A DNA stretch of 64,000 bases, from NCBI RefSeq assembly GCF_001542625.1, contig NZ_CP016279.1:9114001-9178000 (forward strand), in the 5' to 3' direction. Source of the DNA: Streptomyces griseochromogenes. GTDB lineage: Bacteria; Actinomycetota; Actinomycetes; Streptomycetales; Streptomycetaceae. Each line of letters opens with the position of its first letter. Within the stretch, counting starts at the first letter, position 1. This document shows, one piece after another, positions 49,276 through 64,000 of this stretch. The notes below the pieces were generated by a model. It saw nothing but the letters and a program-made list of their open reading frames with translations. It was not told the origin of the DNA and ran no database searches. The translations under genes were made by a program, and so were the position numbers.

Positions 49276-50130
49276 GTGAACCGGACCGAACTCGCCGACT
49301 TCCTGCGCCGCGGCCGTGCCCGCCTGGACCCCTCCGACGTGGGCCTCGCCCCCGGCGCCCGCCGTCGGACACCCGGCCTGCGCCGGGAGGAGGTCGCGTC
49401 GCTCGCGGGCATGTCGGCGGACTACTACACCCGCCTGGAACAGTCCCGGGGCCCGCGCCCCTCCCGCCAGATGCTCACGGCTCTCGCCCGGGCCCTGCGC
49501 CTGACGGACGACGAACGGGACCACCTCTTCCATCTGGCCGGCGAGGATCCGCCCCGCCGGGAGGCGGCCTGTGCGCATGTGCGTCCCGGGCTGCTGCTGG
49601 TCCTGGACCGGCTGCACGACGCGCCGGCGCTGGTGGTGACGGACTGCGGTGAGGTGCTGGCGCAGAACGCGCTGTCACGGGCGCTGTCGGGAGACGTGCT
49701 GGCCCGGCCGCCCCGGCAGCGCAATCTGGTCCGCCGCTTCTTCCTCGACCCGGCGGGACGCGAGCTGTTTCCGCCTCAGGACGTGCCGGAACACGCACGG
49801 GTGCACGTGGCGAACCTGCGCGCGGTGGCCGCCGCCCGCCCCGACGACCCGGAGCCGGCCGCGCTGGTGGCCGAACTTCGTTCCGCCAGCGAGGAGTTCG
49901 CCCGTCTCTGGGACGAGCACGAGGTGGCGGTACGCCGCTTCGCGACGAAACGCTTCCGGCATCCGGTGGTGGGCCTGCTGGAACTGGACTGCGAGGTCCT
50001 GCTCACCGACGACCACCGCCACCAGCTCGTCCTCCACACGGCCCGCCCGGGAACGGAGTCGTACGAACGGCTTCAGCTGCTGAGGGTGGTGGGGACGCAG
50101 GACATGACCCCCCAGGGAGCCGCCGGCTAG
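49276..50130 (+). CDS. XRE regulator with MmyB-like ligand-binding domain
   Basis: A 284-residue regulator. The N-terminal helix-turn-helix (RRRTPGLRREEVASLAGMSADYYTRLEQSRGPRPS, residues ~29-63) is typical of a group of actinobacterial XRE proteins. The larger C-terminal domain (ALVVTDCGEVLAQNALSRALSGD; EVAVRRFATKRFRHPVVGLLELDCEVL) is the MmyB-like ligand domain, which binds small molecules in its homologs. It is divergent from the SDR gene, so it probably represses or activates it in response to a metabolite. GTG 49276 overlaps a GGGGG purine run; its 3' end overlaps era by 4 bases. Confidence 0.9.
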   Translation: MNRTELADFLRRGRARLDPSDVGLAPGARRRTPGLRREEVASLAGMSADYYTRLEQSRGPRPSRQMLTALARALRLTDDERDHLFHLAGEDPPRREAACAHVRPGLLLVLDRLHDAPALVVTDCGEVLAQNALSRALSGDVLARPPRQRNLVRRFFLDPAGRELFPPQDVPEHARVHVANLRAVAAARPDDPEPAALVAELRSASEEFARLWDEHEVAVRRFATKRFRHPVVGLLELDCEVLLTDDHRHQLVLHTARPGTESYERLQLLRVVGTQDMTPQGAAG

Positions 50131-51080
50131 AAACCGAGCTTGCGCAGCTGCTTCGGGTCGCGCTGCCAGTCCTTCGCGACCTTCACGTGGAGGTCCAGGA
50201 AGACGGGGGTGCCCAGGAGCGCCTCGATGTGCTTGCGGGACTTGATGCCGACCTCCTTCAGGCGCTTGCCCTTGGGGCCGATGATGATCCCCTTCTGGCT
50301 CGGGCGCTCGATGTAGAGGTTGGCGTGGATGTCGAGGAGGGGGCGGTCCGCGGGGCGGTCCTCGCGCGGGAGCATCTCCTCCACGACCACCGCGATGGAG
50401 TGGGGCAGCTCGTCCCGGACGCCCTCCAGAGCGGCCTCGCGGATGAGTTCCGCGATCATGACCTGCTCGGGTTCGTCCGTGAGGTCGCCCTCGGGGTAGA
50501 GGGCCGGGCCCTCGGGCAGCAGCGGAACGATCAGGTCGGCCAGCAGACCCACCTGCTTGTCACCGACCGCCGACACCGGGACGATCTCCGCCCACTCGAA
50601 GCCCAGCTCCTTGCCCAGCTGGTCGATCGCGATCAGCTGCTCGGCAAGGGTCTTGGAGTCCACCAGGTCGGTCTTGGTGACGATGGCGACCTTCGGGGTC
50701 TTCTTGATCCCGGCCAGTTCCTTGGCGATGAAGCGGTCGCCCGGGCCGATCTTCTCGTTCGCCGGAAGGCAGAAGCCGATCACGTCGACCTCGGCCCACG
50801 TCGTGCGTACGACGTCGTTGAGCCTCTCGCCGAGCAGGGTGCGCGGCTTGTGGAGCCCCGGGGTGTCCACCAGGATCAGCTGGGCGTCCGGCCGGTGCAC
50901 GATGCCGCGCACCGTGTGCCGCGTCGTCTGCGGCTGGTTCGCGGTGATCGCCACCTTCTGCCCGACCAGAGCGTTCGTGAGGGTGGACTTGCCCGCGTTG
51001 GGCCGGCCCACGAAGCAGGCGAAGCCGGCGCGGTGGACGGTCTCGGCCGGCTTCTCGGATGACTGGGTACGAACGCTCAT
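50127..51080 (-). CDS. era: GTPase Era
   Basis: A 317-residue GTPase needed for 16S rRNA maturation and 30S ribosome assembly. G1 is GRPNAGKST, G3 DTPGLHKP, G4 TKTDLVDS; the switch area contains TTRHTVRGI. The C-terminal KH domain shows GIIIGPKGKRLKEVGIKSRKHIEALLG, with the GxxG RNA-binding loop. Start: MSVRTQSSEKP at 51080; an ATG 9 bases upstream is also possible. Its end overlaps the convergent XRE gene by 4 bases. A core gene; it marks the boundary with the biosynthetic cluster that follows. Confidence 0.97.
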   Translation of the reverse strand: MSVRTQSSEKPAETVHRAGFACFVGRPNAGKSTLTNALVGQKVAITANQPQTTRHTVRGIVHRPDAQLILVDTPGLHKPRTLLGERLNDVVRTTWAEVDVIGFCLPANEKIGPGDRFIAKELAGIKKTPKVAIVTKTDLVDSKTLAEQLIAIDQLGKELGFEWAEIVPVSAVGDKQVGLLADLIVPLLPEGPALYPEGDLTDEPEQVMIAELIREAALEGVRDELPHSIAVVVEEMLPREDRPADRPLLDIHANLYIERPSQKGIIIGPKGKRLKEVGIKSRKHIEALLGTPVFLDLHVKVAKDWQRDPKQLRKLGF

Positions 51081-51230
51081 GCCGACCATTCTCCCTGATC
51101 CACGAAGCCGCGCCGTACCGTGTCGACAGCCCTGGTCACGGTGGTGGGACAGGCGCCGACGGGTTTTCGAACATACGTTCGCCATCGCCGGGGTCGCGGA
51201 CGGTCTGCCGCCGCAGGGCCGGCGTGCACC

Positions 51231-51287: not shown

Positions 51288-52505
51288 TCAGTCGTCGAAG
51301 GCCGCGAAGAGTTCCCGCTTGCTCACCTCTCGGATGCGGCGCACGTCGAACTCCTCCGGGTCCGCGGCCGACAGGGAGTCGAAGACCGCGCCGATGGCGT
51401 TGCCCAGGCCCCAGCAGCTGGTGTACGGGGGCCAGCCGCCGGGGCTGCCGTCCTCCAGGTCGTGCTGGCGGGTGAAGAGATAGTTCGCCCACTCCTTCTT
51501 CGACGGATAGCGGTGATGGTAGTCGTGCGTCGGTGTGTCGGCGGTGATGACGCAGAAGCGGATCGGCGCGTGCACGAACGTCATGCGCAGCAGCCACCTG
51601 GTCCACGCCTTCGCACGCACCGGGCCCCGCAGGTCAGCCGAGGGCGCCGCCTCGCCGAGGAAGACGGCGTTGGTCAGGGAGCCGAAATACTCCTTGCCGC
51701 GCCGCACCTTCACGTCAGGAGCGGGGAACGTGTGCTTGCAGCACAGGCGGAGGACGTTGCTCACCTGGAACAACGGAAAGAGCGGTACGCACCAGATCAC
51801 CAGGAACGCGGGCCAGGTACCGGTCGCGACGGTCAAGGTGAGCGTGCCACCGTAGAGCGCGAGTGCCGTGATCTTCTCTCCGGGCATCGATCCGTGCCAG
51901 AAGGAGCGCATACGGCCCCAGGCGAACTCCGCGTGGAACAGCGGTGAGCACAGCTTGCGAACGACCCTGCGGTACATCTGGGCGCGGGTCATCCCCGGGT
52001 GCACGTCGAGGGTGAGGAGGAAGGCCTGCACCGTGGGGTCGCGCAGCGTCATGTGGTGCACGGCATGGTGGTCGCTGACGTGCTCCTGGCTGTAGCGCTG
52101 GAAGTGCTGCACGATCAGCAGCGACGCGATGGCCCCGCCGATCACCGTGTCCAGCCTGCGCCGACGGAACATATTGCGGTGCGAGCACTGGTGGAAGATC
52201 AGCATCCGCAGGTTGCGCATGCCGTGCAGGGTGATCGCCCAGCCGGGCAGGAGCAGCAGAAGCCAGGGGCCCGACAGCGTCCACGCGGCCATGCCGAGCG
52301 CCACTCCGAGCACGGGGGCGAGGACGGCCTGGAACAGGTGGTAGCCGGGCGTCCACCAGCGGAATGCCCGCTGGCCGACGAGTGGTTTCCCGGTGAAGAC
52401 GGTCAGCGGGTACTGCAGGAAACGGGGCAGCGCCCGCATCGACTCCCGCGGATCTGTGGCATCCGTCCGGTCCAGCAGGACGGAAGCGGTGGGTGTGGAG
52501 GGCAT
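51288..52505 (-). CDS. Membrane fatty-acid-desaturase-like di-iron enzyme
   Basis: A 405-residue membrane protein. Three histidine clusters of integral-membrane di-iron desaturases/hydroxylases are present: HQCSHR, HVSDHHAVHH and, near the C-terminus, HDYHHRYP. Hydrophobic segments (LFQAVLAPVLGVALGMAAWTL, LLLLLPGWAI, ITALALYGGTLTLTVATGTWPAFLVIWCV) surround them. Such enzymes use O2 and an electron donor (for instance the ferredoxin at 63059) to dehydrogenate, hydroxylate or oxidise at nitrogen. It is the last gene of the biosynthetic operon, 78 bp after the lyase. The substrate is unknown; fatty acid desaturation is not certain. Confidence 0.85.
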   Translation of the reverse strand: MPSTPTASVLLDRTDATDPRESMRALPRFLQYPLTVFTGKPLVGQRAFRWWTPGYHLFQAVLAPVLGVALGMAAWTLSGPWLLLLLPGWAITLHGMRNLRMLIFHQCSHRNMFRRRRLDTVIGGAIASLLIVQHFQRYSQEHVSDHHAVHHMTLRDPTVQAFLLTLDVHPGMTRAQMYRRVVRKLCSPLFHAEFAWGRMRSFWHGSMPGEKITALALYGGTLTLTVATGTWPAFLVIWCVPLFPLFQVSNVLRLCCKHTFPAPDVKVRRGKEYFGSLTNAVFLGEAAPSADLRGPVRAKAWTRWLLRMTFVHAPIRFCVITADTPTHDYHHRYPSKKEWANYLFTRQHDLEDGSPGGWPPYTSCWGLGNAIGAVFDSLSAADPEEFDVRRIREVSKRELFAAFDD

Positions 52506-52583
52506 GGAGCCTTTCTCCCGTAGGTGTGCGTGGGTCCGCCGTTCGAGTGCGGGCAGGGCGGGGACGCCGGGGACGCTTCGACG

Positions 52584-54137
52584 TCAGCTGTGCGCGATGC
52601 CCGGCCCCAGTGCCCGGTCCACCAGCGCCCCCGCCGCCCCCGTATAGGCAGCGGGGTCGAGGAGCACGGCGAGTTCGGCGGCGGTCAGGTGGTCCGTGAC
52701 CTGCGGGCGCGCGGCAAGCACCGCGCCGAGGGGGCGGCCGCTGCGCTCCGCCGCCGCCGACGCCTCGGTCAGGAGGGCCTTGGCCGCGGCCTTGCCCAGG
52801 CGCGGAGCGAGCGCGGCGGCCAAGCGCTCGGTGACGATCTGACTGCCCGTCAGATCGAGGTTCTCGCGCATCCGGTCCGGATGCACCGTCAGCCCCCGGG
52901 CCAGTTCCACCCCGGTGTACGCGGCGCCTCCGGCGAGCCGCAGGCACTCGCGCAGTAGTTGCCACTCCGCGTGCCACGCGCCCGCGGAGCGCTCGTCCTC
53001 GGCGAGCATGCACTGGGTCAACGCCCCGGACAGGGCCGGCACTTGAAGTGCGGCGGAGCGCATCAGCGTCGCCAGCACAGGGTTGCGCTTGTGCGGCATC
53101 GCCGAGGAGGCCCCGCGCCCGGCGGCGGTCGGCTCGGCGACCTCGCCGACCTCCGTACGGGCCAGGGACTGGACGTCCAGGGCGATCTTCCCGAGTGCCC
53201 CCGTGGTGTGAGCCAGCGCTGCCGCGAGGTCGGCCATCGGGGTGCGCAGGCAGTGCCAGGGCAGCCCGGAGTACGACAGGCCCAGTTCGTGGGCGAAGGC
53301 ACGGGTGAGGTGGAGCACGTAGTCCGCGTCCCGCGCCTCGGCGGCGGGTGTCCCGTCCGCCGGGCGAGCGCCACCGTTCCCCTCGGCACGGTCGCCCCCG
53401 CCGCTCGTGCCCGTCTCCCAACCCGCCGGGTCCGCTGAGCCGGGTCCGTACGCGAGGTAGCCGGCGAGCGTTCCCGCTGCTCCGCCGAGGGACACCGGGA
53501 GGCCGTGATCGAGGACGCGTTCCACTCTCTCCGCGGCGTCCCGCACCAGGCGGTACCAGCCCGCGGCCTTGAGACCGAAGGTGGTGGGGACCGCGTGCAG
53601 CGCCAGGGTGCGGCCGGCCATGGGGGTGCCGCGGTGGGTGCGGGCGAGGTCGCCCAGAGCCGTGGCCATGCGCAGCAGGTCCCCGTGTACGAGCCGCAGC
53701 GCGCGGGCGGCGACCAGCATGGCACCGGTGTCCAGGATGTCCTGGCTGGTGGAGCCCCGATGAACGTATTCGGCGGCTTCGGGGTCGATGCGCGCCACCA
53801 CCGCGGTGAGCGCCTGCACCAGGCCCACGACCGGGTTGGCCGTCTCCCGGGCCGCATGGGCGAGCGCCGGTACGTCGAAGTACTCGGCCCGGGCGGCCTG
53901 CGTGATCGCTTTCGCCGCCTCGGCCGGGACGGTGCCCAGGGCCGCCTGGGCACGGGCGAGGGCCGCCTCGGCGTCGAGCATGGCCTGCAGCCAGGCCGTG
54001 TCACCGACCGCCCGGGCGACGGGAGTGGCGGCCCGTACGGGGGACAGGAGGCCGACGTCGGCCTCGTCGAGGACGGGGAGTGCCGAGGCCGCGCCGGTGG
54101 CGGCGGGTTCCGCCACCGATGTGATGCCACTCGTCAT
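52584..54137 (-). CDS. Fumarase/aspartase-superfamily lyase, CreD-like (nitrosuccinate lyase candidate)
   Basis: A 517-residue elimination enzyme. The superfamily signature GASSAMPHKRNPVLATLMRS gives the catalytic loop; HRGSTSQDILDTGAM is the second conserved region, and ALHAVPTTFGLKAAGWYR the third. It most resembles PcaB-like (3-carboxymuconate cycloisomerase) lyases, the group that includes the nitrosuccinate lyases CreD and FzmL. A low-complexity Gly/Asp insertion (~GSADPAGWETGTSGGGDRA) sits between conserved blocks. Its start overlaps the stop of the FAD-protein gene (ATGA). Inferred reaction: nitrosuccinate to fumarate plus nitrous acid. Alternative: an argininosuccinate- or muconate-type lyase. 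Confidence 0.85.
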   Translation of the reverse strand: MTSGITSVAEPAATGAASALPVLDEADVGLLSPVRAATPVARAVGDTAWLQAMLDAEAALARAQAALGTVPAEAAKAITQAARAEYFDVPALAHAARETANPVVGLVQALTAVVARIDPEAAEYVHRGSTSQDILDTGAMLVAARALRLVHGDLLRMATALGDLARTHRGTPMAGRTLALHAVPTTFGLKAAGWYRLVRDAAERVERVLDHGLPVSLGGAAGTLAGYLAYGPGSADPAGWETGTSGGGDRAEGNGGARPADGTPAAEARDADYVLHLTRAFAHELGLSYSGLPWHCLRTPMADLAAALAHTTGALGKIALDVQSLARTEVGEVAEPTAAGRGASSAMPHKRNPVLATLMRSAALQVPALSGALTQCMLAEDERSAGAWHAEWQLLRECLRLAGGAAYTGVELARGLTVHPDRMRENLDLTGSQIVTERLAAALAPRLGKAAAKALLTEASAAAERSGRPLGAVLAARPQVTDHLTAAELAVLLDPAAYTGAAGALVDRALGPGIAHS

Positions 54138-56077
54138 GCCATTGCCTCTTTCGCTCGGATCGCAGCGGGCGAGCCGATCACGGACACCAGGGCGGCCGCG
54201 ATGGCATCGGAGTCGCCGAGGGTCACCGAGTCCACGCCGGGCCGGATACCGGCGGCGGTGACCCAGTGCACGCCCTCCGTGGGCACGCCGTGGGCGAAGC
54301 GGCGTGGGTGGGGACGGCCCTGAGCGTCCCGTACGCGGTAGGGCCGCTCGGTCACGGCGAGCCCGCCGGTGACGTGATCGGCGTCGTCGGGGTCGGGTAC
54401 GCGGTGCGAGGTGCATTGCCCGGTGTCCAGCAGGTGGCGCAGCAACGGGTCGTCGGCCGTGCGCAGGTCCGGCTCCGGCAGCCGGGCCTCGACGAGGACC
54501 GAACCGGAGAAGCGGGCGCCGGGGACGTCGGACTCCATGACGAAGGCACCCGTCCGCGCGTCGGCGTGCACCCGCGCCCCGGGGCCCGCGATCCGGAGGA
54601 TGCCGGCGCGGATCAGGGCGAGCATCTGCTCGATGCGAACGGCGGGCGGTCCGATCGACAGGAACGCGTTCAGCGGGGTGTACCAGCGGTCCAGGTCGTC
54701 GTGATGCGAACGGCCTCGCAGTCCCTGGTGGTCGACGAGCAGCCGGACCTCGTTGCGCAGGTCCCGGAACACGTCCAGCGCCGCCTTGAGCGGACCGCTG
54801 ACATTTCCCGCGCGCGCCGCGGCCACGTCCCGTTCCAGGTACTCCTCCAGCCAGGTCCGCCAGGCGTCCTCGTCGCTGAACTCCCTTGCCCCGTAGGGGT
54901 GGTGGACGCGCGCCCAGTCCCATCGTTCGTCCGGTTCCACGCCGGCCTCGGTGAGCAGCTCGGGGTGCTCCGCGGGCGGGGCCGCGAGCAGACGCGCGGC
55001 GAGCGCGCGGGCTCGCGCGGGCTGCCCGGCGGCGGTGACCAGCGCCTCGTAATAGACCGCCTCGACCTCCCGGGAGATCAGCGGCCACAGGTCGCGCCGG
55101 AAGTCCAGGCCGCCGTGCTCGGCTCCGTGCCGCCGCAGCCGGGCGATGGTGTCGGGGGTGAGCAGGCGCGGGTAATAGCGGCCGTGCGCGCCCTTCTCGT
55201 TCTCTCCGCGCGCGTGGTGCGGCACGCCCCGTCGAGACCCCGCGCACAGCAGTGGCTCACGGCCGGAGGGCAGGTAGACGAGCGTCCCGCCGCGCCGCTC
55301 GAAGCGTCCGCCGCGGCCGCTGGTGAGCAGCGCCATGTGGTCGAAGAAGTTCAGGCCGAGCCCGCGCAGCAGTACGGGCTCGCCAGGGCGTGCGGCGCTG
55401 TGGTCGACGTCGGCCGGGTTGGCCGGAGCGTGGTGCACGAGCCCGAACCGGGCGGAAAAGGCGGCCAGTTCACGGTCCTGCGACGTCGGCCGGGCGGCCA
55501 CGTGTCCCTGGCTGAGCACCACGGCGTCGAGACCGTCGAGCACCGTACCGTCCTCCAGGCGCACGCGCTGGTGGGTACCGCCGTCCGTGTCGTCGAGGGC
55601 GACCGCGCGACTGCGGTGCACGCGGACGCCGACACCTTCCGGCGCCCGGCCCGCCACTCGCCGGAACACCCAGGCGAGGTAGTGCCCGTACAGGGCGCGC
55701 GTCGGGTAGTCGTCGGGGCCGAGCCGGGCGGCCTCGGCGAGCACGGCCTCGGCGAAGACGCCGTCCTCGAACGGTCCCATCAAGGTCACGAAGCGCGCCC
55801 ACTCGTAGAGGCTGGGCCCGGGTTCGAGAGGGCCGTCGACGCGCACGCTGTCGTCGGTGAAGAGGGTGACCTGGGAGGCGACGGTGTTCATCAGGAGGTC
55901 GAGCGGCTGGTCCGTGCGCCATACCTGTCCGGCACCTGGCGGGTACGGGTCGACGACATGCACGATGACGTCTGCCGCGGGCCGGTCCGTGCGCAGCCGG
56001 GCGCAGAGCCGTTCGAGTACGGACAAGCCGCGCGGGCCGGCCCCGATGAGACAGAGCGACGTGGTGGCGCGGTTCAC
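54134..56077 (-). CDS. FAD/NAD(P)-binding protein, CreE/FzmM-like (aspartate N-oxygenase candidate)
   Basis: A 647-residue flavoprotein. The FAD-binding start is TTSLCLIGAGPRGLSVLERLCARL, typical of the PF13454-type family; AVVLSQGHVAARPTSQDREL and LRGLGLNFFDHMALLTSGRGG are the NAD(P)/FAD regions; LDFRRDLWPLISREVEAVYY follows. Size and partner fit CreE and FzmM, which oxidise L-aspartate to nitrosuccinate and are encoded next to their CreD-type lyase. Here the two genes are adjacent and overlap by 4 bases, in this same partnership. Start GTG 56077 overlaps the preceding ATP-grasp stop (GTGA). A generic flavin oxygenase remains possible. Confidence 0.8.
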   Translation of the reverse strand: MNRATTSLCLIGAGPRGLSVLERLCARLRTDRPAADVIVHVVDPYPPGAGQVWRTDQPLDLLMNTVASQVTLFTDDSVRVDGPLEPGPSLYEWARFVTLMGPFEDGVFAEAVLAEAARLGPDDYPTRALYGHYLAWVFRRVAGRAPEGVGVRVHRSRAVALDDTDGGTHQRVRLEDGTVLDGLDAVVLSQGHVAARPTSQDRELAAFSARFGLVHHAPANPADVDHSAARPGEPVLLRGLGLNFFDHMALLTSGRGGRFERRGGTLVYLPSGREPLLCAGSRRGVPHHARGENEKGAHGRYYPRLLTPDTIARLRRHGAEHGGLDFRRDLWPLISREVEAVYYEALVTAAGQPARARALAARLLAAPPAEHPELLTEAGVEPDERWDWARVHHPYGAREFSDEDAWRTWLEEYLERDVAAARAGNVSGPLKAALDVFRDLRNEVRLLVDHQGLRGRSHHDDLDRWYTPLNAFLSIGPPAVRIEQMLALIRAGILRIAGPGARVHADARTGAFVMESDVPGARFSGSVLVEARLPEPDLRTADDPLLRHLLDTGQCTSHRVPDPDDADHVTGGLAVTERPYRVRDAQGRPHPRRFAHGVPTEGVHWVTAAGIRPGVDSVTLGDSDAIAAALVSVIGSPAAIRAKEAMA

Positions 56078-57300
56078 GGGGTGAGCTCCTCGCCGCGCAG
56101 GGTCACGGCGACGGAGGCGAGGGCGGCGTCGGCCCGCTGCTCGGCCTCGTCCGGGGTGGCGCCCGTGGTGAGGACCAGGCCGAGCCGGTCCCACGACGAA
56201 CGTACGTCGCCCACGGCGTCCCCGGGGCCACGGCTCAGGTCGAGGCGGTGCACGCCGGGCAGTGCGCGGGCGGCTTCGGCACCGTGGACCTGGTCGATGA
56301 CACCTGCGCCGGGGGCGGACAGGAAGCGCACGGCGGCCGCGCGGACAGGCTCGGGGAAGGGGGGTTGTTCCTCGCCGAGGAGCATGCCGATCCACCGGTC
56401 GTGGACGTTGATCCCGTACGCCAGGTCGATCAGATCCATGATGCGATCGCCGGGCGGCCGCGCGGCGCACTCGATGAGCTGCGGGCCCGCGTCCGTGAGC
56501 ATCCACTCGGCGTGCAGGATGCCGCTGCCGTACCCGACCGCGGCCACCAGCCGTTCCACGGCGCGGCGCCACTGTTCGTCCTGCGGTCCCACGGTGTGCC
56601 CGGTCTCGACGGGGCTGGGGCCGGGCAAGGTGTACTTGCGGGTCACGTTGCAGAACACCACCGCGCCGTCGTGCACCAGGGCTTCGGTGCTGAACTCCTG
56701 GCCCGTCAGGCGCTCTTCGACCAGATAGCGCCATCGCATGGGGCGGCGGGCCAGCTGCCGGCCCTCGTCCGCCTCGGTGCAGTACCGCCAGGCCCGCTCC
56801 ACGTCGTCCCCTCGGTCGAGCAGGACGACACCCAGGCTCGCCTGCCGCCCGGCCGGTTTGACCACACAGGGGCCGCCGTCGGCGAACGCGGCGATATCGG
56901 CAGCGGAGCGTATCTCCCGGAAGGCGGGCCCCGGCATGCCGGCCGCGGCCGTGGCCTCGCGCAGCAGCAGCTTGTCCCGGAGGATCGCCGCCGCCTCCGG
57001 GCCCGCCCCGGCCACGCCGAGCGCCTCGGCGGCCTGCGCGGCCGCGAGGACCGCGTACTCGAGGCCTGCCACCACCGCGTCGAACGGACCCAGCTCGGCG
57101 GCCACTTCGAGGAACTGCTCGTCCTGCTGGTAGCGGGCGAACCGTACCGTGCCGAGGCAGGGGTGCGCGGCGGCCCTGGGCTCCAGCTTCTTGGCGTGCC
57201 ACAGGTCCTCCTCCTCGATGAGGGTGACGCTGCCCGCGGGGCGGCAGCCGTCGAGGGCGGCCAGCGCGGTGTCGTTGTAGCCGATGAGCAGCAGGCGCAT
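56074..57300 (-). CDS. ATP-grasp ligase (third in the cluster)
   Basis: A 408-residue carboxylate-amine ligase. The N-terminal Rossmann-like part is MRLLLIGYNDTALAALDG; ATP-grasp elements include LRDKLLLREATAAAGMPGP, CVVKPAGRQASLGVVLL (the flexible Gly-rich loop), RYLVEERLTGQEFSTEALV and the metal-binding end LIECAARPPGDRIMDLID. These resemble L-amino-acid ligases (BacD-like), which activate a carboxyl group as an acyl phosphate and join it to an amine. The stop overlaps the FAD-protein gene as GTGA. Start at 57300, 2 bp after the MFS gene stop. Confidence 0.88.
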   Translation of the reverse strand: MRLLLIGYNDTALAALDGCRPAGSVTLIEEEDLWHAKKLEPRAAAHPCLGTVRFARYQQDEQFLEVAAELGPFDAVVAGLEYAVLAAAQAAEALGVAGAGPEAAAILRDKLLLREATAAAGMPGPAFREIRSAADIAAFADGGPCVVKPAGRQASLGVVLLDRGDDVERAWRYCTEADEGRQLARRPMRWRYLVEERLTGQEFSTEALVHDGAVVFCNVTRKYTLPGPSPVETGHTVGPQDEQWRRAVERLVAAVGYGSGILHAEWMLTDAGPQLIECAARPPGDRIMDLIDLAYGINVHDRWIGMLLGEEQPPFPEPVRAAAVRFLSAPGAGVIDQVHGAEAARALPGVHRLDLSRGPGDAVGDVRSSWDRLGLVLTTGATPDEAEQRADAALASVAVTLRGEELTP

Positions 57301-57302
57301 GG

Positions 57303-58553
57303 TCAGCGCTCTCCTTTGCGGGCGAGTACGGCGGTGAACACTCCGGCGGCGGCCAGCGGGAACCAGAAGACGCCCGGACCGCCGTGGGACGAGGCGAGCA
57401 GGAAGAAGGTCCCGCCGGCGAAGGAGCCGGCCGACTCCCCTGCGGCCGTGGCCACTTGACGCAGGCTGAGCAGCTCCACCACGGGCCGGTCGCCGCCCAG
57501 TTCCGCGAAGGCGGTGCTCACCGTGGGCGTGAAAAGGGTCTCGGCAAAGGTGAAGACCACGACCGCGGCGAACGCGGCGACAAGGCTGTGCGCGCCGAGC
57601 CCGAGCACCGCGTAGGCGCAGGAGAAGGCGAGCAGGCCGAGCAGCAGATACCGCAGCGGGTGCCCTCCGCGCTCCATCCCGCGTCTCATGAACGCGGTCA
57701 CCGGGATCTGCAGGCCGACGACGAGCACCGCGTTGAGCGAGAAGAACGCGGCCCGCAGGGCGCTGTCCTCGGTGAGCCGGGCGATGTGCAGGGCCAGGGC
57801 CGAGAACAGCTGGGCGTACAGCAGCGACCCCACGGCGGTCACCCAGGCGACACGGCGTACGTCGGGCGCGGTGAAGACCACCTTGAGGATGCCGAGTCGC
57901 AGGGGCCGCCGCTCTTCCTGTGTCGAGAGCCGCAACCCCGCGGGAACGGTGACCAGGGCGGACCCGGCGGCGACGACGTACAGGACGGCGACGAGGGACA
58001 GCAGCGAACCGTAGTGGCCGCCGCCGAACAGGAAGTTGGCGATGACCGGACCGAGCGCCGCCGAGACGTTCACGGCGACCTGGATCGCGGAGAAGACCGC
58101 CGTGCGGTCCCCGGCCGAGGGCAGCGCCCGCACCACGTAGGCGCGGGCGGTCAGACCGTTGACGCTGATGCCGAATCCCGCCGTGACGAGGCAGCACAGG
58201 ATGCCCGGGATCCCGGGTGCCCACGGCAGCGCGCCGAACCCGGCACCGGCGAGCAACAGGCCCCCCACCATCGTCCGCCGGACCGGGGCACGGTGCAGAT
58301 ACCCGCCGATGAACAGGGCTCCGGCCCGCAGCGCGAACGTCGACGCGAGCAGCGCGGTCCCGATCCACCAGGCGTTCACCCCCGGGTGCAGCCGGGGCAG
58401 CAGCACCGGCAGGACGGGGAGCAGGGTGAAGTAGCCGAGGTGCGAGAACAGGTAGTCGAGGACCAGAGTGGCGCCCACGGTACGGACGGTGGCGGGGGCG
58501 GCCTCGGCTCCGGAAGGCGCGCTGTCCCTGGTCGCCGCCCTCTCCGTGCTCAT
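57303..58553 (-). CDS. MFS exporter of the biosynthetic cluster
   Basis: A 416-residue protein with about 12 hydrophobic segments: VRTVGATLVLDYLFSHLGYFTLLPVLPVL, FALRAGALFIGGYLHRAPVRRTMVGG, LLYAQLFSALALHIARL, LVAAFAAVVVFTFAETLF and others. It belongs to the drug/metabolite exporter side of the MFS and, placed between ATP-grasp genes with 4-base and 2-base spacing, probably exports the product and gives self-resistance. Start ATG 58553 overlaps the preceding stop. Confidence 0.9.
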   Translation of the reverse strand: MSTERAATRDSAPSGAEAAPATVRTVGATLVLDYLFSHLGYFTLLPVLPVLLPRLHPGVNAWWIGTALLASTFALRAGALFIGGYLHRAPVRRTMVGGLLLAGAGFGALPWAPGIPGILCCLVTAGFGISVNGLTARAYVVRALPSAGDRTAVFSAIQVAVNVSAALGPVIANFLFGGGHYGSLLSLVAVLYVVAAGSALVTVPAGLRLSTQEERRPLRLGILKVVFTAPDVRRVAWVTAVGSLLYAQLFSALALHIARLTEDSALRAAFFSLNAVLVVGLQIPVTAFMRRGMERGGHPLRYLLLGLLAFSCAYAVLGLGAHSLVAAFAAVVVFTFAETLFTPTVSTAFAELGGDRPVVELLSLRQVATAAGESAGSFAGGTFFLLASSHGGPGVFWFPLAAAGVFTAVLARKGER

Positions 58554-59770
58554 CGTGCCGCTTCCAGAACGATGTCCAGCCGGCCGCGGGCCTCCGCCAG
58601 GATCTCCTCGACGCCCTCCGGCCCGTCCGCGCCCGCGACGAGCACCCCGTGGCGGTCGGCGGAGCTGGTGACGGGGCCGATGACGTCCCCGGGCCACACG
58701 CCGAGATGCGCGGCGAGCAGGCCGGAGGAGCGCGAGAGCATGCCCCAGCCCTCGACGGACCTGACCCGGCCGGGGTCCAGGACGAGGAAGTCGCAGCCCG
58801 CTGCCCCGGCCGCGGGGGGAATCGCGGCGGCCGGGCGGCCGAGCAGGTCGTCCAGGAGGGTGCCGAACAGCTCAAGGCCCGGCCGGGTGTGCTCGACCAG
58901 AGCGTGCAGGAAGTCACCGCCGGGCCTGGCATGGATCTCACCGAGCACGACGTCGCCTTCGGGGGACACCCAGAACTCCACGTGCACGATCCCGTGGGTG
59001 ATGCCGGCCACTGCCACGGCACGGGCGGTCTCCGCACGGGCCGACTCGTCGACGGCGGCGTCCAGGCCCGCGGGCATCCGGTGCCCCGTCTCGACGAAGC
59101 CGGCCCCGGTGTGCTTGCGTGTCAGGCCCAGGATCCGGCACTCACCGCCGAGCATCACGCCCTCGGCGGAGAACTCCTCGCCCCGCACGAACTCCTCGAT
59201 CAGGAAGGGCCGCACACCGTCGAGCGCGTCCAGGGCCGTGGGCAGGTCGCGCGCCGACGTCACCAAGGACACCCCCGCGCTGCCCATGCCGTCACGCGGC
59301 TTCACGATCCACGGCCCGCTCCCGCCGTTCTCCGCCAGGAACCGCTCCGCCGCCGGCAGGTCCGCCGCCACGGCGGAGCGCGGCTGGGTGAACCCGGCGA
59401 CGCGCAGGGCCTCACGGCACAGGTCCTTGGTCCGGATGGTGCGCACGGCCTCCGGGGCGTTGCCCGGCAGGCCGAGTGCGCGGGCGAGCAGCGCCGTGGC
59501 CAGGACCGCGCCCTCCTTGAGTGTCAGGACGGCCGTCACCTCGGGGTGCGCGGCGGCGAACTCGCGACAGGCGTCCTCGTCGTCGTACGCGAGCGGCAGG
59601 ATCTCGTCGGCGGCCATGCGCCAGCCGCCCCCGTCGAGGGCGGCCGGGGTGTCCACGCCGAGCAGGCGCAGGCCCCGGGCCGCCGCCTGCGCGGTGAGCC
59701 GGCGCATCTGGTCCTGCCCGTGCGCGGAGGCCGAGGTGCAGCCGACCACGAGTACGGTGTCAGCGTTCAT
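58550..59770 (-). CDS. ATP-grasp ligase (second in the cluster)
   Basis: A 406-residue ATP-grasp protein. N-terminal TVLVVGCTSASAHGQDQMRRL; ATP-binding RTKDLCREALRVAGFTQP, PWIVKPRDGMGSAGVSLV, FLIEEFVRGEEFSAEGVM; metal-binding terminus VVLGEIHARPGGDFLHALVEH. The E-x-H-A-R-PGGD end is shared with peptide-forming ligases. It overlaps the first ATP-grasp gene by 11 bases and the MFS gene by 4. Different enough from its two neighbours to suggest a distinct amino acid or acid substrate rather than recent duplication. Confidence 0.88.
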   Translation of the reverse strand: MNADTVLVVGCTSASAHGQDQMRRLTAQAAARGLRLLGVDTPAALDGGGWRMAADEILPLAYDDEDACREFAAAHPEVTAVLTLKEGAVLATALLARALGLPGNAPEAVRTIRTKDLCREALRVAGFTQPRSAVAADLPAAERFLAENGGSGPWIVKPRDGMGSAGVSLVTSARDLPTALDALDGVRPFLIEEFVRGEEFSAEGVMLGGECRILGLTRKHTGAGFVETGHRMPAGLDAAVDESARAETARAVAVAGITHGIVHVEFWVSPEGDVVLGEIHARPGGDFLHALVEHTRPGLELFGTLLDDLLGRPAAAIPPAAGAAGCDFLVLDPGRVRSVEGWGMLSRSSGLLAAHLGVWPGDVIGPVTSSADRHGVLVAGADGPEGVEEILAEARGRLDIVLEAAR

Positions 59771-61070
59771 CGCCGATCCTGATGGTGATGGCCTGCTGGG
59801 CGGCGGCGAGCGAGGCACGCACCGCGTCGTACGAGTCGCCGGTGGCGATGACGGCGAGCACGGCGCTGGAGACGAAGTCGGCGGGCGGGACCGCCACCTT
59901 CTGGCCCGGCTCGCGCTCGACGGCGATGTGCTCGACCCCGGCGACGCGCAGCGCGTCACCGAGCCCGTCGATGCCCTCCAGGATTCCGGCGCGGTCCGCC
60001 ATGACCCGGATCAGGCCCGCGTACCGCGCCGGTCCCTCGGCGGGCAGCGGCGCCCGGCCGGTCGCGACGCGCAACGTGTTCTCGCAGAACGGCACCCCGG
60101 TGGCGAGGCCCGTCAGGTGCGAGGTGATGAAGTCGCCGCCGCCGCGCGCCGCGCACTCCACGAGCCGGGCCCGCCCGTCGGGGCCGACCATGCACTCCAG
60201 GTGGAAGGCGCAGTCGTCGATGCCGAAGGCGGCCACGACCGCACGGGTCAGGGCGTGCACGGACTCCAGGGCTTCGGCGGGCAGGGCGCTCGGGAAGACG
60301 TGGCCGGTCTCCAGGTGGAAGTCCGGGGTGGTCGTCTTGTCGGTGACGCCGGCGAAGTACACCTCGCCGCCCTGTACCCAGCCCTCCACGCTGTGCTCGG
60401 TGCCGGTCAGGAACTCCTCGACGAGGATCTCGCCGTCGTGCCCGGTGAAGAGGCGGTCGACAGAGGGCTGGACGTAGCGGTGCAGCTCCTCGAACGCGGG
60501 GCGCAGGCCGTCCTCGCCGTGCACCGTGTAGATGCCCTTGCTGCCATTGCCGGTGACCGGCTTGAGGATCAGCGGGTAGCCGATCTCCGCGGCCGCCTTC
60601 GCCGCCTCGTCCCAGGTGCGTACGCGGGCGTAGCGCGGGATGAGGTCGGGCCGATCCTTCAGGGACTCGCGCATGCGGAACTTGTCCCGGGCCACCGTGG
60701 CGGCCGCGGGCGACGGGGCCCTCAGGCCGTGGCGCGCGGCGAGGCGGCTGACGGCCTCCACCCCGGGGTCGGACCAGGTGACGACGCCCGCGACGGTGTT
60801 GCGGGCGGCGATGTCCGCCATCGTGGCGTCCAGGGCCGCCGCGTCGAAGGTGTCGAGCTGGTGGACCTCGCGGACAAGGCGCTCGGGCAGATCGGCGGGC
60901 GCCTTGTCGGCGATCAGGACGACCTCGTGGCCGAGACGGTGTGCGGCGAAGAACGCGGCGCGCTGCTCGAGCGGCGTACGGCGGACGTTGAGAAAGACGA
61001 TCACGTCCTTCTGGCCCTCGCGTGCGACAGCACACCCGGCGGGCTCGGCGGTGCGGGCGGACTCAGACAT
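59760..61070 (-). CDS. ATP-grasp ligase (first in the cluster)
   Basis: A 436-residue ATP-grasp protein: KDVIVFLNVRRTPLEQRAAFFAAHRLGHEVVLI (N-terminal domain), DKFRMRESLKDRPDLIPRYARV, YPLILKPVTGNGSKGIYTV (Gly-rich ATP loop), EILVEEFLTGTEHSVEGWV, and RLVECAARGGGDFITSHL (metal-binding). Its C-terminal ~100 residues (LIRVMADRAGILEGIDGL ...) form a typical lid/lipoyl-like extension. Overlaps the upstream 669-residue gene by 8 bases. Likely forms an amide or peptide bond; substrates unknown. Confidence 0.88.
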   Translation of the reverse strand: MSESARTAEPAGCAVAREGQKDVIVFLNVRRTPLEQRAAFFAAHRLGHEVVLIADKAPADLPERLVREVHQLDTFDAAALDATMADIAARNTVAGVVTWSDPGVEAVSRLAARHGLRAPSPAAATVARDKFRMRESLKDRPDLIPRYARVRTWDEAAKAAAEIGYPLILKPVTGNGSKGIYTVHGEDGLRPAFEELHRYVQPSVDRLFTGHDGEILVEEFLTGTEHSVEGWVQGGEVYFAGVTDKTTTPDFHLETGHVFPSALPAEALESVHALTRAVVAAFGIDDCAFHLECMVGPDGRARLVECAARGGGDFITSHLTGLATGVPFCENTLRVATGRAPLPAEGPARYAGLIRVMADRAGILEGIDGLGDALRVAGVEHIAVEREPGQKVAVPPADFVSSAVLAVIATGDSYDAVRASLAAAQQAITIRIGDER

Positions 61071-63072
61071 GGCGCTCCTGTGTGCTGTCGATGATCGTTC
61101 GGCGGTGCCAGTGGTGGTCGAACGCGGTGACGGTGATCGGCTTCCCGTGCTGGGCGGACTCGGCCACGAGGTCCGCGGCCTGGGCGAGGAACCGGGCGAC
61201 ACGCGTGACGGCGACCAGGTCGGACCGTTCGAAGGGCGGGCCCTCGCAGCGCAGGATCCGCAGGTCGGTGAGGCTCTGGAACGGGTGGCCCGCGACCATG
61301 ACCCGCTCGGGGCTGCGGGCCGAGTAGCGGATGTTGTTGGCGACGTGGCCGCGGTGGTGCAGATCCGAGTGGACGGCGAGGTCCGGCAGCGCGTGCGGCG
61401 CGAGGAAGTCACGGGCCTGCACCGCCGGGTCCTTCGGCAGGTTGCCGGGCATGACGTGCCAGGTGTTGTACTGCATCCGCGCGGACATGGCCCACGCCGA
61501 GTCGGCCACACTGGCCCGGTCGCCGCCGTGCTGGGCCAGGGCGGTGGCTCCCGGCACGACACAGCAGTAGAAGTCGGGCAGTTCCCAGGAGACGATCTCC
61601 GCCCAGTCGCGCCGGCCCAGTGCGTCGATCAGCTTGGGCAGCGACCGGATGCCGCGGCTCAGGGCGAAGTCCGCGGCGAAGTGTTCGGTGGCCGCGGCGA
61701 CGACGGTGTGGATGAGCGCCTCGAAGCCGCTGGGATGCTCCGGCATCGGTTCGGCGAGCCAGTCCCGCTCGGACCGCAGCAGGGCGACGGCGGCATCCAG
61801 GTCCGCCGCCTCTCCCGGCAGCAGCCCGGAAAGACGCTCGCAGATCCCCTTCTCCTGGCGGCTCGGACCGCTCGGACCGGGCAGCAGAAACTCCGACTTG
61901 CGCCGCGTGGTGGCGTTGATCTCGTAGTAGAGGCGCCGGCCGCTCACCAGTTCCGCGCGTACGACGGCCAACCGCGCGGCGACCGTCTCGAGTCCCTCGA
62001 CGGTGTACTCCCCGGGCCGGTCCGGCACGACGTCGATGTCCGCGTCGGGGTCGACCTGGAGGTAGAGGGCGCGCATGGCACGGAAGTTGTCGGCGACGTG
62101 GTCGAGGGTGAGCTGGTAGCCGTTGAAGCTCTCGATGCGGTTGGGCCCGCCCGACAGGTGGAGCAGCCACAGACAGGCGACGACGACCGCCTCTTCGTCG
62201 GTCCACATCTGCGGGGGCAGCCGGTCGAGGTGGTGGAAGAAGCAGTCGGGGTGCGTCGGCAGCAGCGTCTTGCCGGTGAGGTTGCCGTCGTCGCGCAGGT
62301 TCGAGTAGACGGTCCGGTCGCGGTAGAGCTGTACCGGGGGGACCATGAACACGGCGTTGCGCAGCGCCGCGACCGCCCGGGTGCGGCCCTCGGCGCCGAT
62401 GCGCTCCAGCCAGGTACGGCTCTCGTGGATCTCGTGTGCGACGCGCTGGTCGGCATCGGCCAGGAGCAGCCGGTAGTGGGCGAGGTCCGCTTCGCTCCAG
62501 CCGATGCGCGCGGCGACGCCGACGAAGTCCTCCGGCAGGCTGCGGGCGCCGGGGAGCGTCACCAGGAGGCGGCCGTGCCGGGTCAGAACCAGTGCGCTGG
62601 TGAAGACCGAGGCCGAGGCGGCGTCGCTCGTGGGCCGGGGGCCGCCGGGCTCGCCGGGTCCCGGCTCGCGGCCGGGCCGGGTCAGGGTCTCCAGGGCGGC
62701 GGCCTCGGCGCGGGTGAGCGCGCGCCGGGCGTGGTCCGCCTCCAGGCGCCCGTCGAGGGTGAGCAGCGTCTCGATCTGGGAGGCCGTGTCGGTGGCGCCG
62801 CGCGCCCGGCTCAGGGTGCGGCGCAGCAGCTCCTCGAAGCCCGCGCCGTCCAGGACCCGGTCCGGCTCGGGGGTGGTGCCGGCCGGCCGGTCGCTGCGGC
62901 TGGGCCGCTTGCTGCGCCGGGCCTCCTCCATGGCGAGACGGCGGGCGCTCTTGACGGGGCCTCCAGGGCGATCGGCCCGCTCCGACGGCGGTGTCCGCTG
63001 TGCCGGTTCGCCGGCCGACGCCGCCCGCTGCGCCACCGTGTCCGTACGCTGGGGCCATTCACTTCGGTGCAC
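61063..63072 (-). CDS. Unrecognised 669-residue protein of the cluster
   Basis: I do not recognise this family. A disordered, Arg/Pro/Ser-rich N-terminus (residues 1-~75) is followed by a mixed, mostly helical protein with Trp/His-rich stretches: FMVPPVQLYRDRTVYSNLRDD, PDCFFHHLDRLPPQMWTDEE, LWLLHLSGGPNRIESFNGYQ, SWELPDFYCCVVPGATALAQ, and HSDLHHRGHVANNIRYSARS. No cofactor site, signal peptide or membrane helix is seen. The conserved-looking HSDLHHRGH and GGPNRIESFNG segments could be active-site loops. GTG 63072 has AGGAGA upstream and the start lies 14 bases inside the ferredoxin gene. Being between the ferredoxin and ligases makes it a candidate core biosynthetic enzyme. Confidence 0.75.
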   Translation of the reverse strand: MHRSEWPQRTDTVAQRAASAGEPAQRTPPSERADRPGGPVKSARRLAMEEARRSKRPSRSDRPAGTTPEPDRVLDGAGFEELLRRTLSRARGATDTASQIETLLTLDGRLEADHARRALTRAEAAALETLTRPGREPGPGEPGGPRPTSDAASASVFTSALVLTRHGRLLVTLPGARSLPEDFVGVAARIGWSEADLAHYRLLLADADQRVAHEIHESRTWLERIGAEGRTRAVAALRNAVFMVPPVQLYRDRTVYSNLRDDGNLTGKTLLPTHPDCFFHHLDRLPPQMWTDEEAVVVACLWLLHLSGGPNRIESFNGYQLTLDHVADNFRAMRALYLQVDPDADIDVVPDRPGEYTVEGLETVAARLAVVRAELVSGRRLYYEINATTRRKSEFLLPGPSGPSRQEKGICERLSGLLPGEAADLDAAVALLRSERDWLAEPMPEHPSGFEALIHTVVAAATEHFAADFALSRGIRSLPKLIDALGRRDWAEIVSWELPDFYCCVVPGATALAQHGGDRASVADSAWAMSARMQYNTWHVMPGNLPKDPAVQARDFLAPHALPDLAVHSDLHHRGHVANNIRYSARSPERVMVAGHPFQSLTDLRILRCEGPPFERSDLVAVTRVARFLAQAADLVAESAQHGKPITVTAFDHHWHRRTIIDSTQERHV

Positions 63073-63460
63073 GGAAGTTCTCCTGACCTTCGACGTAGGC
63101 CCACAGCGACTCGTCGGTGGGCTGCCAGGCTGGATCGGGGTAGATGCAGTCGACCGGGCAGGCCTGGACGCACTTGGCGCAGCCGTTGCACAGCTCCGGA
63201 ACGATCACCACGTCCAGTCCACGGTTGTAGACCGCGCTGAACTGCGGCGGGCAGGCCCGCATGCAGGAGTCGCAGCCGATGCACTCGGCCTGTTCGATCC
63301 GGCGGGGCTCCTTGCGCCACTCGCTGTTGCGCCGTCGCTCGGCGATGCGCTGCTCCACCGTGGCCGCGGGAGCGTCCTGTGCCGCCTCGCCCTCGGGCGG
63401 GGCGGCGAAATGCGGTGATGTCAGGGGTGGTTGGGAGGGTTGTGATGTCTGGGAGGTCAT
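63059..63460 (-). CDS. 2x[4Fe-4S] ferredoxin
   Basis: A 133-residue electron carrier. The N-terminal ~55 residues are low complexity (Ser/Pro/Gln rich); the C-terminal part has two cluster motifs, CIGCDSCMRACP and CNGCAKCVQACPVDCIYP, each with the CxxCxxCxxxCP pattern of a bacterial [4Fe-4S] ferredoxin. It probably supplies electrons to the desaturase-like or flavin enzyme of the cluster. ATG 63460 has AGGAAA upstream. About 100 bp separate it from the aldehyde dehydrogenase stop, with no clear hairpin seen there. Confidence 0.9.
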   Translation of the reverse strand: MTSQTSQPSQPPLTSPHFAAPPEGEAAQDAPAATVEQRIAERRRNSEWRKEPRRIEQAECIGCDSCMRACPPQFSAVYNRGLDVVIVPELCNGCAKCVQACPVDCIYPDPAWQPTDESLWAYVEGQENFRAPK

Positions 63461-63561
63461 GGTGTTTCCTGGCTCGGAGGGAAGACCTGCGCGGTGGCGC
63501 ACGGACCGTGCGGGTGCGGTGCGGAACCGGGAAGGGCGCCGGCCGGGGCGGGGTGGGGCCC

Positions 63562-64000
63562 TCAGCGCGCGGCCGGCGCGTGCTGCAGGATCTTCAGGCG
63601 TCCGAAGGCGAGCAGCCCCTGGTCCCCGCCCTCGTATCCGTAGCCGCTGTCCAGTCGCCCGCCGAGCGGAGCGTCCGGGGCCGCGCCGGCGGCGCAGTTG
63701 ATGGACACGCTGCCGGCGTCGATCCGGCGGGCCAGTTCACGGGCGTGCTCCAAGTCCCCGAAGACGTAGGCCGACAGGGCGTAGTCCGTGCCGCCTGCGA
63801 GGGTGACGCACTCTTCGTCGTCCGTGTACGCGACGAAGGGAGCGATCGGCCCGAAGGGCTCCTCCCGCAGGATCCGGGCGTCCCGAGGCGTGCCGGTGAG
63901 AACCGTCGCGGGGTAGTAGAAGCCGGGGGCGCCGGGCAGCTCGCCGCCCGCGCGAACCGTCGCGCCCTTGGCGACCGCGTCGGTGACGAGCTCATGCATC
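63562..64000 (-). CDS. Aldehyde dehydrogenase, C-terminal part
   Basis: Runs off the right edge; the last ~146 residues are present. EEPFGPIAPFVAYTDDEECVTLAGGTDYALSAYVFG is the typical end of the NAD(P)-dependent aldehyde dehydrogenase fold, with the EEPFGP motif; DSGYGYEGGDQGLLAFGRLK is the tail of the succinate-semialdehyde/lactaldehyde group. The catalytic Cys lies outside the window. Same strand and direction as the cluster, so it is probably an upstream part of the same pathway. Confidence 0.85.
   Translation of the reverse strand, partial: MHELVTDAVAKGATVRAGGELPGAPGFYYPATVLTGTPRDARILREEPFGPIAPFVAYTDDEECVTLAGGTDYALSAYVFGDLEHARELARRIDAGSVSINCAAGAAPDAPLGGRLDSGYGYEGGDQGLLAFGRLKILQHAPAAR

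What the first reader, a model, noticed from the sequence alone, without database searches (positions are those of the whole stretch)
51288..64000. Possible new N-N/nitroso-type natural-product cluster combining a CreE/CreD-like pair with three ATP-grasp ligases
Seen: a minus-strand operon of overlapping genes for aldehyde dehydrogenase, ferredoxin, an unknown 669-aa protein, three ATP-grasp ligases, an MFS exporter, an FAD protein, a fumarase-family lyase and a membrane di-iron enzyme. Known: CreE/FzmM and CreD/FzmL convert L-aspartate to nitrosuccinate and then fumarate plus nitrous acid, feeding diazo and hydrazine biosynthesis. Inferred: nitrous acid made here is joined to amino-acid-derived pieces assembled by the ATP-grasps. 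I do not recall a described cluster with this gene set. No NRPS, PKS or carrier protein is visible.
Basis: partly seen in the sequence, partly recalled or inferred. Interest (0 to 1): 0.9.

Follow-up and report, generated by a model that had tools for sequence, protein, structure and literature searches.

The report
Hydrazine-forming gene cluster in Streptomyces
This stretch of Streptomyces DNA looks like a recipe for a small peptide-like compound with a rare nitrogen-nitrogen bond, using a recently discovered heme enzyme family in a gene combination we did not find described.

Summary
The operon is real. The FAD protein and lyase are a CreE/CreD pair (59% identical to the solved Asp N-hydroxylase, 5 of 5 pocket residues; above NCBI's nitrosuccinate-lyase cut-off). 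Nitrite is thus most likely used to N-aminate an amino acid, giving a hydrazine that three ATP-grasp ligases build into a peptide-like product. The operon continues past the window with the rest of the ALDH gene and a 2OG oxygenase. The KinJ homologue falls in a separate clade of 20 rows; all five members with readable surroundings carry the same membrane di-iron enzyme. Around that enzyme, 17 of the 19 genomes read have glutamate-mutase genes (Glu to 3-methylaspartate) directly downstream. The two exceptions, the window and L008, carry the oxygenase plus ALDH instead, so I propose a 3-methylaspartate-type building block made by another route. Chemistry is inferred; no protein was tested. A new variant of a known kind.

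The parts
63562..64000 (-). Aldehyde dehydrogenase (C-terminal part; gene continues outside the window to 64974, 470 aa in all)
   Evidence: PF00171 115.5 bits; full ORF in L004 13562-14974. A 2OG-Fe(II) oxygenase gene follows outside the window at 65121-66053.
63059..63460 (-). Dicluster ferredoxin with N-terminal extension, proposed electron donor of the KinJ-like enzyme
   Evidence: Fer4_10/Fer4_21 dicluster hits; two CX2CX2CX3CP motifs read from the sequence; overlaps the next gene by 14 bp. Alternative start 63502.
61063..63072 (-). KinJ/FzmP/NegJ-type heme hydrazine synthase (669 aa; true start may be further in)
59760..61070 (-). ATP-grasp ligase 1
   Evidence: PF13535 79.7 bits plus LAL_C2 37.3 bits
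58550..59770 (-). ATP-grasp ligase 2
   Evidence: PF13535 52.7 bits plus LAL_C2 55.4 bits
57303..58553 (-). MFS exporter
   Evidence: PF07690 67.1 bits
56074..57300 (-). ATP-grasp ligase 3
   Evidence: LAL_C2 88.4 bits, PF13535 51.5 bits
54134..56077 (-). L-aspartate N-hydroxylase (CreE/FzmM type)
   Evidence: 8cp2 682 bits, 59% identity and R266 R409 R412 N413 R416 all kept
52584..54137 (-). Nitrosuccinate lyase (CreD type); alternative start 54116
   Evidence: NF052556 762.7 bits, cut-off 650; best solved structure CreD 5xny 552.9 bits
51288..52505 (-). Membrane non-heme di-iron (fatty-acid-desaturase-like) oxidase
   Evidence: Three His boxes HX3H, HX3HH, HX2HH invariant in 52 of 52 rows; no Pfam model passed, weak GntB 49 bits; of 19 genomes read with this enzyme at 53% identity or more, 17 have glutamate-mutase genes directly downstream, the window and L008 do not

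Best explanation
A biosynthetic operon for a hydrazine-containing (N-N), probably peptide-like metabolite. CreE oxidises L-aspartate to nitrosuccinate and CreD releases nitrite (inferred from homology). The KinJ-like heme enzyme, fed electrons by its own ferredoxin, reductively joins nitrite to the amine of an amino acid, making an alpha-hydrazino acid (inferred; reported for KinJ, FzmP and NegJ in the literature). Three ATP-grasp ligases add amide bonds and the MFS protein exports the product. The stated confidence is for this core. Less sure (about 0.4): the amino acid is 3-methylaspartate or an oxidised form of it, because the membrane di-iron enzyme is tied to glutamate mutase in relatives; the di-iron enzyme would hydroxylate or desaturate this C5 unit. 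In this genome, which has no glutamate mutase, the 2OG oxygenase and aldehyde dehydrogenase would make the unit instead, for example by oxidising a valine methyl group to a carboxylate (valine itself about 0.2). Order of steps, substrates and product are inferred.
Against: No activity, metabolite or expression data. The clade is distant from the other loci (37-45% identity; stem 1.24 changes per column with midpoint root, quick tree without bootstrap); no sequence named KinJ, FzmP, Lom29 or NegJ was aligned directly, and the paper numbers two of the arginines in two ways (R497/R551 and R496/R550), of which only the first fits here. P0007 and P0008 fit no single offset. DosT, the heme GAF protein the paper names, is not among the 50 rows, and Foldseek alone gave KinJ no hit at E<=0.001. 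CreD is missing next to CreE in L006 and L095 of the three relatives with this order, and their CreE is altered or lacks a stretch, so CreDE is not a fixed part of the pathway. L008 has KinJ and the di-iron enzyme without CreDE or ligases in the stretch read. L008's genome does hold a divergent mutase (29% and 36% identity) on another contig. OXY and ALDH are not an obligate pair: L143 has OXY without ALDH. Valine as substrate is a guess from chemistry.
Confidence: 0.72

Rival explanations
1. The substrate of the KinJ-like enzyme is plain aspartate or glycine. The 2OG oxygenase, ALDH and di-iron enzyme modify a different residue of the peptide that the ATP-grasps attach. (A rival for the building block, not for the core.)
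For: KinJ and FzmP accepted only L-Asp among the amino acids tested, NegJ uses Gly (PMC12154649). The pocket arginines are kept.
Against: The clade is separate with 24 fixed differences, two of them beside the active-site residues N536 and H539. In L008 the set is just OXY-ALDH-fdx-KinJ-di-iron enzyme, with no homologue of the window's ligases in the stretch read.
Confidence: 0.35
2. The membrane di-iron enzyme is the N-oxidising step that turns the hydrazine or a hydrazone into a diazo (or nitramine) group, a counterpart of Dob3.
For: A di-iron oxidase of another fold (Dob3) does this in Nocardia (PMC13061610, passages). In L008 the di-iron gene directly follows the KinJ gene.
Against: 14 of the 17 mutase-linked homologues (L096-L109) show no KinJ homologue within the stretch read, 8 to 20 kb, so the family's ordinary substrate does not look like a hydrazine.
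Confidence: 0.15
3. One reading: nitrous acid is used directly to nitrosate or diazotise an amine carried by ATP-grasp-made pieces.
For: The CreE/CreD pair is convincing.
Against: No acyl-CoA-ligase-type (AMP-forming) enzyme among the 10 scanned proteins; CreM, Aha11 and AvaA6 are ATP-dependent ligases in PMC10445470 (passage; their AMP-forming type is recalled). A hydrazine synthase with its ferredoxin is encoded in the operon.
Confidence: 0.08
4. OXY and ALDH do not replace glutamate mutase. They make a different, unrelated building block, and the di-iron enzyme of this clade changed substrate with them. (A rival for the building block, not for the core.)
For: In the di-iron tree window, P0149, L008 and the contig-linked P0244, P0256, P0190, P0235 fall in one supported group of 10 (98/93), apart from the mutase-linked ones.
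Against: KinJ, ferredoxin, ligases and di-iron enzyme are otherwise the same set as in the mutase-type clusters, which argues for the same core product.
Confidence: 0.4

Closest known systems
KinJ/FzmP/NegJ heme hydrazine synthase with KinI-type ferredoxin (Kenney et al. 2025, PMC12154649)
   Same: 8 of 8 highlighted residues, GAF-like C-terminal domain, adjacent dicluster ferredoxin with N-terminal extension
   Different: Forms a separate clade of 20 rows with 24 fixed differences; 37-45% identical to the loci outside the clade, apart from the fragment L067 (54%); substrate unknown
Hydrazino cassette of fosfazinomycin / kinamycin / lomaiviticin
   Same: CreDE and KinJ genes together; a ferredoxin too in kin and lom (fzm lacks it)
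   Different: Lacks the downstream hydrazine-carrier enzymes of that cassette (recalled); adds three ATP-grasps, a di-iron membrane enzyme, a 2OG oxygenase and an ALDH
Negamycin cluster (NegJ)
   Same: KinJ homologue with an ATP-grasp protein, as described in PMC12154649
   Different: The paper names N-methylation, lysine hydroxylation and beta-lysine enzymes there; no methyltransferase or aminomutase was found among the operon proteins scanned here
CreE / CreD (cremeomycin) and Streptomyces sp. V2 Asp N-hydroxylase (8cp2, PMC10404684)
   Same: 59% identity and 5 of 5 pocket residues for the V2 enzyme; CreD 5xny is the best solved match
   Different: The lyase carries a longer unaligned loop (about residues 232-268) than CreD
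Glutamate mutase-desaturase clusters (L096-L109; no description found)
   Same: Same di-iron enzyme family at 53-65% identity
   Different: No KinJ in the stretches read; mutase present

Membership tests
KinJ/FzmP heme hydrazine synthase | Residues C468, R497, M498, N501, H504, H541, R551, R570 (KinJ numbering, from the paper, which elsewhere writes R496/R550) | tested here: met
   All 8 at offset +35, the only offset that fits; 0 of 2000 shuffles above 5 of 8; 78 of 78 rows. K356 of the paper would fall one residue off (K392, 78 of 78 rows).
KinJ/FzmP heme hydrazine synthase | C-terminal domain with distant GAF similarity | tested here: met
KinJ/FzmP heme hydrazine synthase | Partner 2[4Fe-4S] ferredoxin encoded beside it (frequent, not universal in the family) | tested here: met
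   Dicluster Pfam hits, genes overlap 14 bp
KinJ/FzmP heme hydrazine synthase | Heme b binding and nitrite-dependent hydrazine formation | not testable with these tools
   Needs protein
Nitrosuccinate lyase (CreD) | Passes curated family cut-off | tested here: met
   NF052556 762.7 bits vs 650
L-aspartate N-hydroxylase (CreE) | Arg/Asn substrate pocket R266 R409 R412 N413 R416 | tested here: met
   5 of 5
fzm/kin/lom hydrazino cassette | Downstream hydrazine-carrier enzymes in addition to KinIJ/CreDE | tested here: not met
   None recognised among the 11 operon proteins by Pfam (ALDH scanned in part); the cassette's member list beyond KinIJ/CreDE is recalled
WelO5-family halogenase (OXY) | HxG iron site for chloride (recalled) | tested here: not met
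   HxD in 121 of 121 rows, the window's protein being there twice: expected to be a hydroxylase although its fold is WelO5-like
Fatty-acid-desaturase-like membrane di-iron enzymes | Three histidine boxes | tested here: met
   H105 H109, H142 H146 H147, H327 H330 H331 in 52 of 52 rows
Azaserine/triacsin-type hydrazinoacetate pathway | Spb40/Tri28-like cupin-MetRS N-N enzyme | tested here: not met
   No such protein among the 11 operon proteins scanned; the rest of the genome was not searched for it

The most novel reading that the evidence does not exclude
A KinJ-type hydrazine synthase clade dedicated to a 3-methylaspartate-derived building block, which the membrane di-iron enzyme oxidises at its methyl group so that the new hydrazine can close an N-N ring (pyrazolidine or pyrazoline amino acid). 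Nature would supply that building block by two unrelated routes: glutamate mutase in one lineage, and valine oxidation by a WelO5-fold hydroxylase plus aldehyde dehydrogenase in the other.
Probability: 0.15. Interest if true: 0.8.

Novelty: new variant of a known kind. Interest (0 to 1): 0.62.

Why it matters
Few enzymes that make N-N bonds are known, and the KinJ family was described only recently (preprint dated May 2025). This operon puts nitrite supply, hydrazine synthase, ferredoxin, ligases and exporter in one compact unit without NRPS or PKS. It belongs to a KinJ clade whose substrate may differ from aspartate and glycine. The apparent exchange of glutamate mutase for an oxygenase/dehydrogenase pair gives a direct, testable prediction of the building block.

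Tried and rejected
Considered and dropped: (1) ordinary adenylosuccinate/argininosuccinate lyase: rejected, the nitrosuccinate-lyase model passes its cut-off and CreD is the best solved match. (2) Unrelated FAD oxygenase: rejected. (3) Guanitoxin-type arginine hydroxylase for the di-iron protein: GntB model 49 bits against cut-off 380, not adopted. (4) The aminotransferases near the relatives' clusters as pathway genes: 87% identical between L094 and L095 while their KinJ proteins are each only 63-64% identical to the window's, and without meaningful similarity to the one beyond the window, so treated as neighbours. (5) OXY as halogenase: HxD kept.

Led nowhere: the genome-wide KinJ search gave no answer three times. 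A ferredoxin search instead found 17 of 295 genomes, only G000, G170 and G196 at 75% identity or more. The lyase search at E<=1e-100 (2 of 9 genomes) cannot show absence, because it missed the F001 lyase that tblastn finds. OXY in 396 genomes of the phylum matched only the window's own, while the protein database holds 150 relatives. The plasmid search found 8 KinJ relatives, none over 42% identity, not followed. PDB sequence searches with OXY, the KinJ alignment and the di-iron protein gave nothing usable. Foldseek gave KinJ no hit at E<=0.001. L067, a KinJ fragment (54% over 207 residues), has no di-iron gene in its 7.3 kb; at N536+1 and H539+1 its sequence has the Ser and Phe of the other rows (read), so I take it to lie outside the clade. 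Subscription journals are mostly not covered.
Full report
What is there. The window lies at G000:C1:9114001-9178000 of a one-contig 10.76 Mb genome. On the minus strand, from beyond the window's right end leftwards: a 2OG-Fe(II) oxygenase ("OXY", 65121-66053), ALDH (63562-64974), ferredoxin (63059-63460), 669-aa protein (61063-63072), ATP-grasp 1, ATP-grasp 2, MFS, ATP-grasp 3, FAD protein, lyase and membrane di-iron protein (51288-52505), then an era-like GTPase gene (50127-51185; recognised from its sequence, not by a search). From the ferredoxin to the lyase the genes overlap or lie within a few bases.

The CreE/CreD pair. The lyase scores 762.7 bits against NCBIfam NF052556 nitrosuccinate lyase (cut-off 650), and its best solved relative is CreD 5xny (552.9 bits, next 280). 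The FAD protein's only solved relative at E<=0.01 is 8cp2, the Streptomyces sp. V2 L-aspartate N-hydroxylase (682 bits; paper PMC10404684, search listing and passages seen). It shares 59% identity, and the five residues the authors find around the bound sulfates (R266, R409, R412, N413, R416) are all kept.

A separate clade with its own gene set. A search of named genomes gave 63 loci. The KinJ tree has 78 rows: window, 61 of those loci, L095 and 15 of the 27 proteins. Left out were L067 (fragment), L068 (under the length limit) and L094 (same genome as L007). The window falls in a clade of 20 rows with SH-aLRT 100 and a stem of 1.24 changes per column (quick method, midpoint root, no bootstrap; L008/P0010 are identical and L007/P0007 nearly so). 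24 columns are fixed differently between the clade and the other 58 rows, two of them next to active-site residues N536 and H539. Of the 63 loci, the di-iron gene was detected in three, L006, L007 and L008, all in the clade, and in none of the other 60 (flanks up to 10 kb, some cut by contig ends). With the window and L095 that makes five of five clade members with readable surroundings.

The mutase link. A search of 392 genomes of the genus with the di-iron protein gave 25 genomes with a match at E<=1e-20, 17 of them at 53% identity or more, window included. I read around the 16 others, L006 and L008. In 17 of these 18 (19 with the window) a B12-binding protein and a glutamate mutase E subunit (PF02310 45.6 bits and PF06368 366.9 bits for the F001 pair) lie directly downstream. 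The window and L008 lack the pair and instead have OXY and ALDH upstream of the ferredoxin. Four of the eight distant homologues (29-36%) were also read and lack the pair (L110-L113). The further relatives in the protein database (258, 120 listed) could not be read in context. The window genome has no PF06368 match, while 5 of 5 other genomes in the same search do. L008's genome has one divergent mutase (29% and 36% identity for the two parts) on another contig. Of the 16 other close di-iron genomes, one (G363) has an OXY relative above 50% identity, about 0.49 Mb away and without ALDH beside it; two more have relatives at 34-35%. In the di-iron tree the members known or inferred to be OXY-linked group together (98/93, 10 rows); for P0149 and P0244 the link rests on equal contig lengths.

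Weak points. CreD is absent beside CreE in L006 and L095; L006's CreE has lost two of the five pocket residues and L095's lacks an internal stretch, so nitrite can apparently come from elsewhere, as Kenney et al. also note for most KinJ clusters. The genome-wide lyase search cannot add to this, because it missed a lyase known to be there. Dob3, a di-iron enzyme of another fold, makes diazo groups from hydrazones (PMC13061610, passages), so the di-iron protein could act on nitrogen; but 14 of its 17 mutase-linked relatives show no KinJ in the stretch read.

Verdict. A real, conserved N-N biosynthetic operon. The two claims that hold best are KinJ-type hydrazine formation and CreDE nitrite supply; the building block is a reasoned proposal. 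The published survey of KinJ neighbourhoods mentions ATP-grasps in general but, in the text I read (its supplements were not available), not this gene set.

Noticed in passing
L096, L099, L101, L104: Glutamate mutase plus the di-iron enzyme sit next to a 45-47% CreE relative with Asn413 replaced by Asp/Glu; no KinJ and no CreD in the stretches read (L104's genome has a CreD relative elsewhere). Possibly an N-oxygenase for a substituted aspartate.
   Followed up: partly
L106-L109: Di-iron enzyme plus glutamate mutase with a PLP-decarboxylase family member (Pfam read for one, L107) and ATP-grasp relatives: another uncharacterised cluster type.
   Followed up: no
L110-L113: A distant (33-34%) di-iron relative beside a HalD (Halogenase D) family protein and a PurD-like ATP-grasp protein (Pfam read for L110 only).
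   Followed up: no
L006, L094, L095: The mutase-type version of the cluster lies beside a class I aminotransferase (87% identical between L094 and L095), whereas the window's version lies beside an era-like gene, so the cluster occupies different chromosomal sites.
   Followed up: partly
L095 9080-14472: In L095 the CreE gene lacks an internal stretch, no CreD is detected and ATP-grasp 2 is split across frames: this copy looks partly decayed.
   Followed up: no
L149 1549-8517: The Pseudonocardiales MAG has a second cluster with a divergent glutamate mutase and an ATP-grasp protein.
   Followed up: no
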